Positions 1,565 to 63,933 of a stretch of DNA of 64,000 bases are shown here, in pieces. The translations under genes were made by a program, and so were the position numbers. The notes beneath the pieces are model-generated. The model was given only the letters and a program-made list of their open reading frames with translations, was not told where the DNA came from and did not search any database. Every line of letters begins with the position of its first letter. Position 1 is the stretch's first letter. Source of the stretch: Lanius collurio (Eukaryota > Chordata > Aves > Passeriformes > Laniidae). Location: positions 11,458,032 to 11,522,031 of the forward strand of contig JACBWW010000017.1 in NCBI GenBank assembly GCA_020086605.1, written 5' to 3'.

Positions 1565-1570
1565 ACCAGC

Positions 1571-1875
1571 TGTTGGGATACCTTACCCTAAGTCCTGGTG
1601 GGGGAGGGACCCTGGAGTGTATGGGTTTGCTCCTGTCCCTGTCCCTATGTCACATGTGGCCTGTGCCTGTCTTCTGATTGGTTGTTGGGGGTTCCCTGGG
1701 CTCGGGAAGAAGGGGGTAATCTCAGGACTGTGAGGTCAGTCAGCCATGGGACCTCAGTCATGATGAGGCTGGAGGGAAATAAACATCCACAACCAACCAC
1801 AAAACATTGCTTCATATTTCCTTCCAACGTTCATCGCTGTCTTATATTTGTTATAAGTACTCCCCACTTGCAACA
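1571..1875 (+). repeat. 5' LTR of the endogenous retrovirus
   Basis: Starts TGTTGGGATACC and ends TTGCAACA. It contains a poly(A) signal AATAAA at 1778-1783 but no strong TATA box. It aligns end to end, without gaps, to the copy at 4984-5288. The sequence just after it starts TGGTGGAGAATG one base beyond the LTR, where a primer-binding site would lie; I could not assign the tRNA. Confidence 0.88.
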
Positions 1876-1975
1876 ATGGTGGAGAATGTTGGGGTATGAT
1901 CCCTGGAGAAAGTGATTTGTGAGTAAACTCTGGATATCTCTTCTTGCTTTCATTTTGCTGTCCCATCTCTGAACT

Positions 1976-2224
1976 ATGGAGGACTCATGGAAAGACTCAT
2001 GGCTGTCTGAACTGCAAAGAGACATTTACTTTAAACTTAAATAGGTTCTTGAATGGCGATATGTAGATTTTAGTTTAATTCAAGCTCAGAAAGAACCAAG
2101 ACACTTCCTGGCATGGTTGTTTAAAAAGTTCTTCTACGTTTCTTGGGATTTGATTCTTACCAACGACTTTTGGGAGAATGTTTGGACACAATTAATTTCT
2201 GAATCAAAATATATGCCAATGTAA
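1976..2224 (+). pseudogene. Gag matrix-like remnant, interrupted
   Basis: A frame opens at ATG 1976, about 100 bp after the 5' LTR, where a retroviral gag would start. It is broken by TAG at 2042-2044 and ends at TAA 2222-2224, about 82 codons in all. The aromatic and basic stretch after the first stop (for example WLFKKFFYVSWDLIL) resembles the start of a retroviral matrix domain. Position and composition are the evidence; homology was not tested. No capsid or nucleocapsid motif follows, so gag is both interrupted and truncated. Confidence 0.5.
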
Positions 2225-2239
2225 AAATATTTTCGTGAA

Positions 2240-2720
2240 TATTACTTAATTGCAGAGACTGTTGAGCAGTGTTGGCTGTGTCCCGCTCCTGTTCTAGTGG
2301 CGAACACGTGGTCGAGCAGTGTGCTCACTGCAGTGGGCTCCTCCATTGCCCCGGAGACCGCACGGCCTCGGCCGTGAGCGCCCAGTGCACTGCGGGCGGC
2401 AGCAAGGGAGCTCCCACGCATGGGAGGGCTACTGCGAGCCACGGCGGTGGGAGTGAAGCCAGGCGTGGTGGGAGTGGGGCCAGCATGGGCTGCGGAGTCA
2501 GTGGTGGACCACGTGGCGCGCGGCGGCTCAAGCCCCGCGCCAAGAAAGGCAGTGGTGATAACAGTAGTTGATATGGTGACCGTGGTGAGCCGCGCTGAGC
2601 CAAGCCGGAGACATACGAGTGACGTGGTGGTGGCGGCGAGGGGAAGCCGTGTGGGTCCTTTGGAGCGGCCTGGTTAACGGGACGGTGCAGCGCGAGGCTG
2701 CGCCGAGCCCAAGCAGAATC
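2240..2720 (+). other. GC-rich stretch inside the retroelement
   Basis: The base composition rises sharply here, with many CpG, in contrast to the AT-rich sequence on both sides. All three frames on either strand are open for 60-140 codons, which is expected from the composition. It sits just upstream of the cold-shock-domain frame and could be the 5' end of the captured mRNA. That is an inference. Confidence 0.45.
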
Positions 2721-3239
2721 CTATGCAGGGCACAGAGCCAAAGCAGGGACAACGCAAGAGAGCGCAGAACCCAGAAACCCACCGCAGCGGTGCCACCCAC
2801 AAAGCATGGAGCAGTGGCCACGCAGGGGACCAACAGAGATGTTAAAGTCAGCAAAGCGGCAGCCAGAAGCAGTAGCAGTGATCCTGGCTGCGGCAGCTCC
2901 AACATGAGAGAGAGCAAAAGCGAAAGTGAAAGCGAGAACACAGACAGCAAACAGCAGCAACGCAGAAAAAGGAAAAAAGTTATCGTAACTAAAGTTTTTG
3001 GAACTGTAAAATGGTATAATGTAAAGAAAAATTATTGTTTCTTGGTGAGAAATGATACTGGAGAAAGTATCTTTGTCCATTGATTTGACATTATGAAATA
3101 TAACCCCAAAAGGAATGTTCCAAGCTTAGAAGAAGGAGAAAGGGCGGAGTTTAAAATTGTACAAGGAAGAAAGGGCACACAGGCAGCATGTGTTACAGGC
3201 CCTGGGGGTGCTTTTGTAAAGGGTAGTAGATATGCTTGA
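2619..3239 (+). pseudogene. Y-box protein-like cold-shock domain frame with one internal stop
   Basis: An open frame starts at ATG 2619. A low-complexity, Ser/Arg/Lys-rich lead is followed from about 2973 by the start of a Y-box cold-shock domain. The RNP1-side motif GTVKWYNV at 3000-3023 compares with GTVKWFNV in YBX1-type proteins. TGA at 3081-3083 interrupts the domain just after the VH that ends its first half. The same frame then continues open for 51 codons through the second half, with VTGPGGA and a final SRYA, to TGA at 3237-3239. The domain has no introns, so the source was an mRNA, and no Arg-rich C-terminal tail follows. Y-box proteins bind single-stranded RNA and DNA and package mRNA. 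Divergence from YBX1 is substantial. Whether a product was ever made is unknown. Confidence 0.72.
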
Positions 3240-3338
3240 CAATATCCTTATCCCTTTTCCAATCATACCTTTCCCTTTTATCCTATGCTTTCTGTTGCAG
3301 TCAGCCATAGCCCTAGCCAGGGTTTCCTGGACCCCATT

Positions 3339-4049
3339 TGTTATAAATAAGGGACCAGATTACCAATTTAACAATTATCCATTTATTTTGTACTACATTG
3401 TAGCTTTGTTTGAATGTAATTTTGTGCTTTGTTGTAGCTTTGTAAGTTAGGATCTCTCTTGTAGTTTAAGAAAGAAACCCACACTTTGTTGTGGAGAAAC
3501 CAGCTTCTTATCAGACCTTACATTGCTATGCAAGAATTTACCACCCCTCCTTACCCCTTTCAAAGCTGGCCTGCCTGGAGAGTAGTAGATAAGGAAAAGA
3601 CAGAAAAAAAAAAAAAGATAAGAAAACGGGCTGAATATGCAAACTAGAGCTGAAAAGACCCCTGGGAGTGTAAGAACCCCTAAAAAAATAATAATTTAAA
3701 ACGAGCCAACAAACTTTTAAGAAAAATGAACCAGGCTACTCTATAGGCAATTACTACCTGGCCAGCTTTTGAGTTCTCCAAAAAGTCACCGTAACAAAAG
3801 AGTCTATTGGAGCCACTGCCCTGAGGACAGCGAATTACCACCATCGCCTTCGTATACCCTTTGGTATACAGCCACGCCTCGTGAGGAACGCTTGAAGGCC
3901 CGGCTCTATCACAGGGAGTGATAGAGCCGAATTTCCTCCTCCTCCAAGTCGAAGCTGGGGGCAACGAAGCTGGCCGGAGCCCCCACCCGAGCTGATCACT
4001 TTTAATAAAGGCTTAAAAAGGACCATCAGTCCTGCCCTTTTTTATTTCA
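3339..4049 (+). mobile_element. Nested solo LTR, 711 bp
   Basis: The segment starts TGTTATAAATAAGG and ends TTTATTTCA. It is flanked on both sides by the 5-bp direct repeat CCATT (3334-3338 and 4050-4054). Removing it joins ...GGACCCCATT to GGACAAG..., which restores an uninterrupted target. It has a poly(A) signal AATAAA at 4004-4009. A 14-bp A-run lies inside at about 3606-3619. A 5-bp duplication with TG...CA ends fits an ERV LTR left by recombination between two LTRs. It entered after the outer element. Confidence 0.78.
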
Positions 4050-4059
4050 CCATTGGACA

Positions 4060-4640
4060 AGAGGTCCAGTGGTTTGGTTCTCATTAATCCCAGGAATGCT
4101 AGGACGGCTGTCCGCCCAAACATAAGCACCCCCAAGCTGCCTGGCGGGAAAGTTCATTGCCCAAGGTGAGAAAGATGTGGCACCCTGCACATCTGCAATG
4201 GCCACCGCTGTCCCCTCCCTTAGATCTGTCATTGGCCCAAGCTCATCCTCTCCTCCTACCTCTCTCTCCCAGTGGTTAAGCTGTGTGTACCCTTGCCTCT
4301 ATTACACTCCTTGTCTGTGGTGCTATTGGTTGTTTTATGTTTGCTCTGCCCTGAGCAGTGGGGTATAAAACCCCCTGTCAAGGGCTGCTCCTCACTCTTC
4401 TTGGCCCCTCCTCCCCGGGCCCAATAAACTTGTTCCTGTTTCTTCATCCCTCATTACTTCATCTCTCCGTGCGCCTTCCCCACCGGTGGCTGAGGCGAGC
4501 CTTGCCTGGACCTAGCCCAGCCTCCTGCACTCCCTCTGCACCTTCCCCCTGCCGTGGCAGCAGGTGAGACCATTGCCCGGCTCTTAGCCCCCTGAGCCAG
4601 CCACTCGGCGGGCACCGTGGCACCTTTTTATCCCCAGTGT
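4060..4640 (+). repeat. Second LTR-like segment with TATA box and poly(A) signal
   Basis: The order of signals matches a retroviral LTR read on the plus strand: an inverted CCAAT (ATTGG, about 4325), TATAAAA at 4364-4370, a pyrimidine-rich stretch, and AATAAA at 4423-4428, followed by a GC-rich U5-like tail with CAGGTGAG near 4560. I could not find terminal TG/CA with matching flanking duplications, so the ends are approximate. It differs in sequence from both the outer LTRs and the 711-bp solo LTR. Confidence 0.55.
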
Positions 4641-4823
4641 GTTCCCAATCAGTATTTCCATCTCTGGTTCCCCTCACAAAACCATGCTTTTCCATTTGCC
4701 ATGAAGCCCTTTGCAACGCCGATGGGGGGATGAAAAGAGGGCGGGGGGAAGAAATTAACTGTCATTTTCTAAGATTCCAACAGGTACAGAAAACAAAAAA
4801 CTCTATTCTGACTCAGTTTTCAC

Positions 4824-4984
4824 ATGAAGCATGCTCAGAGTCCTGTCTCCCTTCTGATGCGCCAAAGAAAATCTGTTTGGACACTTGAGGACTCAAAAAT
4901 TGGCTTATTTTCTTTAGAAATTGTTTTGTTATGTTTATCCAGCTGTTATCCACTGCTCATTTTATTTAAAACAAAGGGTGAAAT
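4824..4984 (+). pseudogene. Env transmembrane-like C-terminal remnant
   Basis: An open frame from 4824 runs into the 3' LTR. It encodes a hydrophobic stretch of about 23 residues (GLFSLEIVLLCLSSCYPLLI...) followed by a short basic tail (FKTKG). This is the position and shape of the membrane anchor and cytoplasmic tail of a retroviral env, just before the purine tract and 3' LTR. There is no upstream fusion peptide or disulfide motif, so it is at most a remnant. A chance hydrophobic frame is the alternative. Confidence 0.35.
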
Positions 4985-5288
4985 GTTGGAATACCTCACC
5001 CTAAGTCCTGGTGGGGGAGGGACCCTGGGGTGTATGGGTTTGCCCCTGTCCCTGTCCCCATATCACGTGTGGCCTGTGCCTGTCTTCTGATTGGTTGTTG
5101 GGGGCTCCCCGGGCTCGGGAAGAAGGGGGTAATCTCGTGATTGTGAGGTCAGTCAGCCATGGGACCTCGGCCATCATGTGGCTGGAGGGAAATAAACATC
5201 CACAACCAACCACAAAATATTGCCTCGTATTTCCTTCCAACGTTCATCGCTATTTTATACATGTTTTAAGTATTCCCCGCTTGCATCA
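4984..5288 (+). repeat. 3' LTR of the endogenous retrovirus
   Basis: Starts TGTTGGAATACC and ends TTGCATCA; AATAAA at 5191-5196. It is the same length as the 5' LTR, with about 27 substitutions between them counted by eye. The purine-rich tract precedes it directly and the ACCAGC duplication follows at 5289-5294. Confidence 0.88.
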
Positions 5289-5294
5289 ACCAGC

Positions 5295-11059: not shown

Positions 11060-11950
11060 TTGACGAGGAGTTCGTGCAGCGGGGCAATGCCCTTTGGTAG
11101 GGCAGTGCCCGGGTCACACGGCGGCCAGGGTCGGGCTGTGGGACTGCTCTGCCACCACGCCGGCCTGGGGTCGAGCCAGGCACGGAGCCCAGTGCACGCA
11201 GCCGTAAGCTGGTACGGCAAAACTGCCCTGGGAAGGCAGTGGCAGCCGGCAGGCCCTGCTTGCACCGCAGGGCAGAGCTGTGACTGCGGCTGGTCACACC
11301 AAGCTCGCCGGGGCCGGGCGGCGATGGCCGCTGTGCCGGACCCCGCTGGTCACACCAAGCCCGCCGGGGCCGTGCGGCGATGGCCGCTGTGCCGGACCCC
11401 GCCGGGCGGCGGCGCGGCGCCCCCTGCCGGCCTCGGGGCCACATGGCGGCGGCGCCCGGGAGGGAAGGGAGACAAGAGGGAGGAAGCGAGAGTAGCGGCC
11501 GCGGGGGTTAACGCCGGCCCAGAAGTTGCTTCCAGGGCCCGTGGGGCGACATAAGGGGAAAGGACGGCCGGCAGCTCACAGCCCGAGCCAGCGGCTGCTC
11601 AGCCCTGCAGCACGAAACCCCCGCGCTGTGGCGAGAGGCGCTCGGTCCGCCCGAGGGGCGGGCGGCCGCATGTCCCTGCCCCAGCCCTGCACCGGCGCTT
11701 GTAAACGCCTGGCCAGGTGGGGGGCACCCGGTGAAGTGTCCCAAAACAACAGCCCTCGTTCAGCTCAGATACGGCCGGAGGAGGGGGTGAGCCTCGACGG
11801 GGATGATGCTCTCACGGCACGCAGGCACCCGGCAGCCCGGAGTGAGCACGGGTGGGAACGGGGCAGCAGCGCAGAGCCCTGCCTGTCTGCCTGCGGTACC
11901 TGCGGGGCACAGGAGGCACGGCGTGCGCGCTGCGTGTAGCGCAGCAGCCG
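11060..11950. promoter_or_regulatory. CpG island
   Basis: A run of nearly 900 bp, rich in G+C and dense in CpG, stands out from the flanking sequence. It contains GC-box-like GGGGCGGG and CCGCCC motifs and a short ATG (MAAAPGREG...) at about 11442 that stops after 22 codons. Overlapping long frames on both strands follow from the base composition. CpG islands of this size usually mark a promoter. It is about 10 kb beyond the SVIL 3' end, so it is not the SVIL promoter. The transcript it serves, and its direction, cannot be read from sequence alone. Confidence 0.65.
11290..11401. repeat. 56-bp tandem duplication in the CpG island
   Basis: Two adjacent copies (about 11290-11345 and 11346-11401) begin with CTGGTCACACCAAGC and end with GTGCCGGACCCCG. 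They differ at only a few positions. Confidence 0.85.

Positions 11951-22728: not shown

Positions 22729-63933
<41,205 letters not shown>

What the first reader, a model, noticed from the sequence alone, without database searches (positions are those of the whole stretch)
1565..5294. Retrovirus-like element carrying a host-type Y-box cold-shock domain
A single integration (matching 305-bp LTRs, 6-bp ACCAGC duplication) holds a truncated gag-like start, then an intronless cold-shock domain of Y-box type, and no pol. This is the layout of a defective retrovirus that has transduced a cellular cDNA. Known avian examples carry oncogenes such as src and myc; I know of none carrying a Y-box protein. 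Y-box proteins bind and package RNA, so a captured copy could in principle have affected packaging of the element's own RNA. The purpose is speculation. The structure is seen.
Basis: partly seen in the sequence, partly recalled or inferred. Interest (0 to 1): 0.85.

Follow-up and report, generated by a model that had tools for sequence, protein, structure and literature searches.

The report
Retroelement family with captured cold-shock domain
A short virus-like jumping element seems to have taken a piece of a host RNA-binding gene into its own protein and kept it working while it spread to more than a hundred places in this genome, which suggests that the borrowed piece helps the element.

Summary
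The window copy (1571-5288; 305-bp LTRs 91% alike; ACCAGC duplication) is a decayed member of a family of pol-less LTR elements (about 2.2-2.6 kb): LTR, gag/matrix-like N-terminus, low-complexity linker, Y-box cold-shock domain (CSD), Pro/Tyr/Phe-rich tail, LTR. The same genome gave 150 scored CSD matches from 1304 candidates: 123 without a stop inside, 10 in open frames of 499-509 codons. Bases 3293-4622 are later LTR insertions; six other copies printed show the uninterrupted site. The 48 CSDs compared form one clade beside human YBX1-3. dN/dS is 0.67 among the closest and 0.31 among the deepest pairs of 28 copies; shifted frames give 0.79 and 1.16 on the deep pairs. So a CSD was probably captured once and kept as a working domain while the element multiplied. 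Most likely job, inferred: RNA-binding part of a Gag-like protein. Five paper searches listed no such element. The search for a pol-bearing partner did not complete; the N-terminal domain matched nothing in the libraries searched.

The parts
1565..1570 (.). Target-site duplication ACCAGC, left copy
   Evidence: Identical to 5289-5294
1571..1875 (+). 5' LTR, 305 bp
   Evidence: 91.1% identical to 4984-5288; 40 scored genome matches at 82-100% identity, two of them the window's own, from 1818 first-look candidates
1674..1681 (+). CTGATTGG in the LTR, like the core of a Y-box (inverted CCAAT) motif; 5087-5094 in the 3' LTR
   Evidence: In register in 43 of 81 LTR copies (some counted twice, as loci overlap), rank 22 of 298 8-mers by conservation; that this is a Y-box core is recalled; weak
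1877..1894 (+). Primer-binding-site-like stretch just after the LTR (TGGTGGAGAA...)
   Evidence: Also found in 10 of 19 other copies, by a pattern that itself asked for TGGTGG, so this is no proof of conservation; primer tRNA not identified
1976..2239 (+). Start of the element gene: gag/matrix-like N-terminal part; stops at 2042-2044 and 2222-2224 in this copy
   Evidence: 24 of 30 loci have it. In 22 copies this frame has 20 stops in 1876 codons against 121/1858 and 158/1865 in the other frames; dN/dS 0.30 in the deepest quarter. The family's N-terminal parts matched nothing in Pfam, PDB, viral contigs or the protein collection
2240..2966 (+). GC-rich linker of the same gene (Ala/Ser/Arg/Gln/Lys-rich)
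   Evidence: Present in the near-full copies. In its first half the frame of the N-terminus has 10 stops in 1660 codons, against 87/1658 and 22/1651 (16 copies); no frame stands out by dN/dS. In two young copies the N-terminal ATG and the CSD are 353 and 351 codons apart (coordinates)
2973..3236 (+). Y-box type cold-shock domain, 88 codons, in-frame TGA at 3081-3083
   Evidence: 50 of 87 residues identical to human YBX1
3240..3288 (+). First part of the Pro/Tyr/Phe-rich tail of the gene (after a TGA at 3237-3239 in this copy)
   Evidence: Aligns with the uninterrupted tail of other copies
3293..4622 (+). Later foreign insertion: a solo LTR, itself interrupted; not part of the element
   Evidence: Six of six other copies printed read straight across this point (layout of more); its duplication is decayed (GCTTTC / CCTTTT), so its exact ends are my reading
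3339..4049 (+). Second solo LTR, 711 bp, nested in the first; 5-bp duplication CCATT at 3334-3338 and 4050-4054
4623..4733 (+). Rest of the Pro/Tyr/Phe-rich tail; stop at 4731-4733
   Evidence: 21 of 26 copies have a stop at this codon, with 5 stops in the 52 codons before it over all 26; in the two young copies the frame runs on to a stop 64 codons after the CSD
4734..4966 (+). 3' untranslated part of the element
   Evidence: Shared by other copies (tail part 78-90% identical); no frame stands out
4967..4983 (+). Polypurine-tract-like stretch next to the 3' LTR
   Evidence: A near-identical AAAAACAAAGGGTGAAA-like stretch before the LTR in 12 of 19 other copies searched; 3 gave a wrong site, 4 gave none
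4984..5288 (+). 3' LTR, 305 bp
5289..5294 (.). Target-site duplication ACCAGC, right copy

Best explanation
A family of short LTR retroelements without pol carries one gene for a chimeric Gag-like protein of about 500 residues: a gag/matrix-like N-terminus, a long low-complexity linker, a cold-shock domain taken from a host Y-box mRNA, and a Pro/Tyr/Phe-rich tail. Shown: the layout, many insertions with their own LTRs and several with their own duplications, a single clade of element CSDs, purifying selection on the N-terminal and CSD frames, and recent insertions with long open frames. Inferred: the CSD stands where a nucleocapsid would stand and binds the element's RNA, so that it is packaged or protected for reverse transcription, while reverse transcriptase and integrase come in trans from another retrovirus or ERV.
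For: Layout in 30 loci. Own 6-bp duplications: of 22 copies tested, 6 exact with TG..CA ends and 8 with one mismatch; exact in two young copies. 26 of 29 other loci have an LTR pair; 24 after dropping near-duplicates, 2161-2593 bp from end to end, which leaves no room for pol. CSD frame: 17 stops in 2511 codons against 214/2497 and 217/2501 in the other frames. dN/dS 0.67 (95% 0.44-1.03) in the closest quarter and 0.31 (0.20-0.45) in the deepest quarter of pairs of the 28 copies chosen by DNA likeness; the same deep pairs give 0.79 and 1.16 in shifted frames. One clade, YBX-like forms near the base. W65, F74, F85 and H87, RNA-contact residues of YB-1 (PMC9928419, passages), are kept in 178 of 190 cells against 62% of all sites. 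Ten of 150 matches lie in frames of 499-509 codons; in two of two checked, N-terminal ATG, CSD and tail stop add up to that frame. Two young copies have LTR K2P 0.017 and 0.025.
Against: Nothing shows RNA binding, packaging or expression. No capsid domain was recognised, so particle formation by this protein alone is doubtful. The N-terminal part matched no Pfam, PDB or viral entry, so 'matrix-like' rests on position and sequence character. No pol-bearing partner was found; the search for one did not complete in 21 tries. The dN/dS yardstick is not clean: in the leader, linker and 3' part the same method gives 0.45-0.78 for most frames on deep pairs, so the neutral level is below 1 and pairs share branches. 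E121, another YB-1 contact, is Q in 45 of 48 copies. In the window copy, positions shared with bacterial cold-shock proteins were not significantly better kept than others (17 of 26 against 33 of 61, p 0.23). 'One clade' was tested against three human sequences only.
Confidence: 0.6

Rival explanations
1. The CSD protein acts on the host, not on packaging: it mimics germ-line Y-box proteins, so that the element's RNA is stored, stabilised or translated, or escapes silencing.
For: Selection on the CSD fits any trans role; YB-1 knock-down lowers HIV virion production through viral RNA metabolism (PMC6040738, abstract).
Against: The CSD is in one frame with the gag-like N-terminus in both young copies checked, which points to a structural protein. 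Helping all RNAs in trans would be weakly selected for single copies (inference).
Confidence: 0.22
2. The CSD protein binds a Y-box motif in the element's own LTR and drives its transcription.
For: CTGATTGG lies in both window LTRs and in register in 43 of 81 LTR copies, rank 22 of 298 8-mers.
Against: 38 of 81 copies lack the exact motif; inverted CCAAT boxes are common in promoters (recalled); other LTR stretches are better conserved.
Confidence: 0.08
3. The CSD is a passenger: selection acts on the N-terminus only, and the CSD is kept because copies come from few masters.
For: The N-terminal frame is also constrained; ladder-like tree.
Against: dN/dS in the CSD falls to 0.31 on deep pairs while its shifted frames stay at 0.79 and 1.16; a neutral passenger of a master lineage would not show this.
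Confidence: 0.07
4. A single defective retrovirus that transduced a Y-box cDNA once.
For: The window copy alone looks like this.
Against: The same CSD and layout recur across the genome with their own LTRs, several with their own duplications.
Confidence: 0.02
5. A processed pseudogene of YBX that landed in an old element.
For: The CSD is intronless.
Against: The CSD is flanked by element sequence in 30 of 30 loci; 43% residue divergence from YBX1 with LTRs only 9% apart. A 13-base A run at about 3605 lies inside the later LTR insert, not at the CSD.
Confidence: 0.01

Closest known systems
Maize Bs1
   Same: LTR element that took part in making retrocopies of three cellular genes (PMC5408686, passages); lacks pol (recalled)
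   Different: Plant element with few copies (recalled) and other genes; here one RNA-binding domain is part of the gene of a family with at least 150 scored CSD copies and signs of lasting selection
TR-GAG elements of plants
   Same: Terminal-repeat retrotransposons with a GAG domain, classed as non-autonomous (PMC10552921, passages)
   Different: No captured host domain known to me; plant elements; here no known Gag domain was recognised by profile
Oncogene-transducing avian retroviruses (recalled: src, myc carriers)
   Same: Cellular coding sequence inside a retrovirus, viral genes lost or replaced
   Different: Those are exogenous and recent; this is an inherited, long-lived family
LTR-mediated retrocopies (Tan et al. 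2016, as cited in PMC5408686, passages)
   Same: Host mRNA joined to LTR-element cDNA by template switching, reported for chicken too
   Different: Those are retrocopies of genes; here the hybrid became a replicating family with conserved coding
Vertebrate YBX1/YBX2/YBX3
   Same: CSDs of the 48 copies are 50-74% identical to human YBX1; RNA-contact aromatics mostly kept
   Different: No YBX sequence recognised by eye outside the CSD; source paralogue not resolved (YBX1 and YBX3 tie in the most host-like copies)

Membership tests
LTR retrotransposon / endogenous retrovirus | Paired LTRs | tested here: met
   Window; 26 of 29 other loci have their own LTR pair in the held DNA, 3 (L041, L059, L060) do not
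LTR retrotransposon / endogenous retrovirus | Target-site duplication at insertion | tested here: met
   ACCAGC in the window; of 22 copies, 6 exact with TG..CA ends, 8 with one mismatch, 8 not convincing; two young copies exact
LTR retrotransposon / endogenous retrovirus | tRNA primer site and polypurine tract | tested here: inconclusive
   Purine tract in 12 of 19 copies searched; TGGTGG after the LTR in 10 of 19, by a pattern that asked for it; primer tRNA not identified
Autonomous retrovirus | pol (RT, integrase) | tested here: not met
   24 LTR pairs only 2161-2593 bp from end to end, filled by the parts described; in two young copies the LTR follows the tail directly
Gag-only non-autonomous LTR element (TR-GAG-like) | Recognised Gag domain | tested here: inconclusive
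   N-terminal frame under constraint but no Pfam, PDB, viral or protein-collection match
Gag-only non-autonomous LTR element (TR-GAG-like) | Mobilised in trans by a partner | not tested
   The own-genome search with the N-terminal domain did not complete (21 tries)
Y-box cold-shock domain | CSD above the Pfam cut-off, best to Y-box proteins | tested here: met
   Natural copies L057 and L034: PF00313 75.0 and 63.8 bits, cut-off 27; the window's two broken halves fall below it alone, 26.5 and 24.7 bits; best PDB hits YB-1 and YBX2
Y-box cold-shock domain | RNA binding | not testable with these tools
   Kept contact residues are indirect evidence only
Processed pseudogene | Poly(A) tail and own duplication at the insert | tested here: not met
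   CSD flanked by element sequence in 30 of 30 loci

The most novel reading that the evidence does not exclude
A retroelement replaced its nucleocapsid by a host Y-box cold-shock domain: a single captured RNA-chaperone domain became the RNA-binding part of a Gag-like protein and served a pol-less lineage from its oldest host-like copies to insertions a few million years old.
Probability: 0.35. Interest if true: 0.88.

Novelty: new variant of a known kind. Interest (0 to 1): 0.8.

Why it matters
Retroviruses are known to pick up host genes, but the known passengers are mostly short-lived (recalled). Here a host-type RNA-binding domain looks like a lasting, selected part of a mobile element, with a series from host-like to derived forms in one genome. 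It offers a natural test of whether a cold-shock domain can do the work of a retroviral nucleocapsid, and warns that some 'Y-box protein-like' gene models in such genomes may be element copies.

Tried and rejected
Considered and rejected: one-off transduction (copies genome-wide); processed pseudogene; chance open frame (stop counts and dN/dS). A position-conservation test on the window copy alone was not significant (17 of 26 against 33 of 61, p 0.23). A neutral-decay simulation was planned and not run. In one search the leader, linker and 3' part gave dN/dS of 0.45-0.78 for most frames on deep pairs (leader frame 0 gave 1.00), so ratios are read against those and against shifted frames, not against 1. 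No relatives in viral contigs or the protein collection; these probably hold no bird genomes. PDB and Pfam gave nothing for the N-terminal domain. No Rfam family and no tRNA in the window. Paper searches for a cold-shock or Y-box domain in an ERV, LTR element or bird element listed nothing on it; only titles and starts of abstracts were seen, and searches listed 15 of 16 and 12 of 18 papers. Passages of PMC3747384 were looked at and not used. Biases: the 20 CSDs come from a ranking by protein likeness, which favours intact ones; the 28 come from a ranking by DNA likeness. L040 and L055 were dropped before counts and later as near-duplicates of L038 and L051. Some LTR pairs are partial or run into flanks (L033, K2P 0.314, is doubtful).
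Full report
What is there. The window copy spans 1571-5288 with two 305-bp LTRs, 91.1% identical (K2P 0.096), and an ACCAGC duplication. The cold-shock domain at 2973-3236 is of Y-box type: its two halves hit YB-1 at 9.5e-12 and 1.9e-11. One TGA splits it. The window lies at G000:C17:11458032-11522031 of an unnamed 1.097-Gb genome in 2132 contigs.

Nested inserts. Bases 3293-4622 do not belong to the element. Other copies run straight from sequence like 3240-3288 into sequence like 4623-4680 (six of six copies printed). The insert is a solo LTR with a decayed duplication, and inside it sits a 711-bp solo LTR at 3339-4049 with an exact CCATT duplication.

A family, not a single event. The LTR query gave 1818 first-look candidates, of which 40 were scored, at 82% identity or more (two are the window's own LTRs). 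Of the 28 other LTR loci fetched, 9 have parts of this element beside them (7 elements, as two were met at both ends) and 19 have none of the parts sought within 1.5 kb, as solo LTRs would; I looked only for this element's parts. The CSD-region DNA query gave 1122 candidates; 40 were scored, giving 52 matches. A human YBX1 CSD query gave 1304 candidates; 150 were scored, each an uninterrupted stretch of 75 residues or more, E 4.5e-27 or better, 56-74% identical to YBX1. By my count of that table 123 of 150 have no stop inside and 10 of 150 lie in open frames of 499-509 codons. Only the best candidates are scored, so the ranking favours intact copies, the counts are lower bounds, and a few rows may be assembly duplicates. 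Surroundings were checked for the 30 loci L031-L060 and for five more of the 150: three host-like and two young. All 35 have element parts beside the CSD.

Layout. Loci L031-L060 show LTR, leader, gag-like part, GC-rich part, CSD, tail, LTR in the near-full copies; 24 of 30 have the window's type of N-terminal part. L052, L057 and L058 carry a different, longer version of it, as do L008, L012/L029 and L015/L016. Of 29 loci other than the window, 26 have an LTR pair in the held DNA; after dropping two near-duplicates, 24 pairs have median K2P 0.135 (0.055-0.314; the highest is doubtful) and are 2161-2593 bp from end to end. There is no room for pol. Of 22 copies tested, 6 have exact 6-bp duplications with TG..CA ends, 8 have one mismatch (L051 and L055 are near-duplicates of each other), and 8 are not convincing. 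Two young copies have exact duplications and LTR K2P 0.017 and 0.025. At a recalled bird rate of 2-3e-9 per site and year the window copy is roughly 15-25 million years old and the young ones roughly 3-6.

One gene. In the two young loci checked, the N-terminal ATG lies 353 and 351 codons before the CSD in the same frame, and the tail adds 64 codons to a stop (coordinates; tail). The sums, 504 and 503, match the open frames of 505 and 504 that the tool reported. So N-terminus, linker, CSD and tail are one frame there. In the older copies the tail is shorter: 21 of 26 have a stop at the codon of window 4731-4733. In the window copy the gene is broken in several places.

Selection. In the 28 copies picked by DNA likeness, the CSD frame has 17 stops in 2511 codons against 214/2497 and 217/2501 in the other frames, and 15 of 28 have none. 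Pairwise dN/dS is 0.67 (95% over codons 0.44-1.03) in the closest quarter of pairs and 0.31 (0.20-0.45) in the deepest; the same deep pairs give 0.79 and 1.16 in shifted frames. Five old against five young copies give 0.20 (0.10-0.35), but these come from a list ranked by protein score. Pairs share branches, so the intervals are rough, and the leader, linker and 3' part give 0.45-0.78 in most frames by the same method, so the neutral level is not 1. Even so, CSD and N-terminus stand apart: the N-terminal frame has 20 stops in 1876 codons and 0.30 on deep pairs. This is the pattern of a coding sequence kept in the replicating lineage and decaying after each insertion.

Origin. The 48 element CSDs compared form one clade apart from human YBX1-3 (support 87), with the most YBX-like copies near the base and the copies with long open frames at the tip. 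Only these three human sequences served as outgroup; the host's own YBX exons were not retrieved. YBX1 and YBX3 tie as nearest. L073 and L074 look mosaic by eye: first half old type, second half new type.

Function. W65, F74, F85 and H87, named as RNA-binding residues of YB-1 in PMC9928419 (passages), are kept in 178 of 190 cells, against 62% of all sites; K118 is kept in 44 of 48 rows (one unreadable); E121 has become Q in 45 of 48. A working RNA-binding domain is therefore likely. I take the nucleocapsid-like role as best because the CSD sits at the place of a nucleocapsid in a Gag-like frame, and because HIV depends on YB-1 for its RNA metabolism (PMC6040738, abstract). This is inference. 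Rivals: a host-mimicking RNA regulator, and a transcription activator that acts on a Y-box motif in the LTR (weak).

What could not be done. The own-genome search with the N-terminal domain, meant to find the pol-bearing partner, did not complete (21 tries). That domain has no match in Pfam, PDB, viral contigs or the protein collection, so 'gag/matrix-like' is a judgement from position and sequence character. Presence in other species is unknown. Whether repeat databases already list the family is unknown; five paper searches listed no such report.

Noticed in passing
window 22760-61802, minus strand: Several open stretches read like exons of supervillin (SVIL); recognised from memory only. 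The element would lie downstream of its 3' end.
   Followed up: no
L073, L074: CSDs that look mosaic by eye, with an old-type first half and a new-type second half, as if two subfamilies had recombined.
   Followed up: no
L052, L057, L058; also L008, L012/L029, L015/L016: Copies with the same kind of CSD and tail but a different, longer N-terminal part, as if that part had been exchanged.
   Followed up: partly
L038/L040 and L051/L055: Near-identical element copies on different contigs, perhaps haplotype duplicates in the assembly.
   Followed up: no
window 1674-1681 and 5087-5094: A Y-box-like motif (CTGATTGG) in the LTR of an element that encodes a Y-box type domain.
   Followed up: partly
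window 11289-11400 and 62209-62314: Two-copy tandem repeats of 56 and 53 bp, 96% and 98% alike.
   Followed up: no
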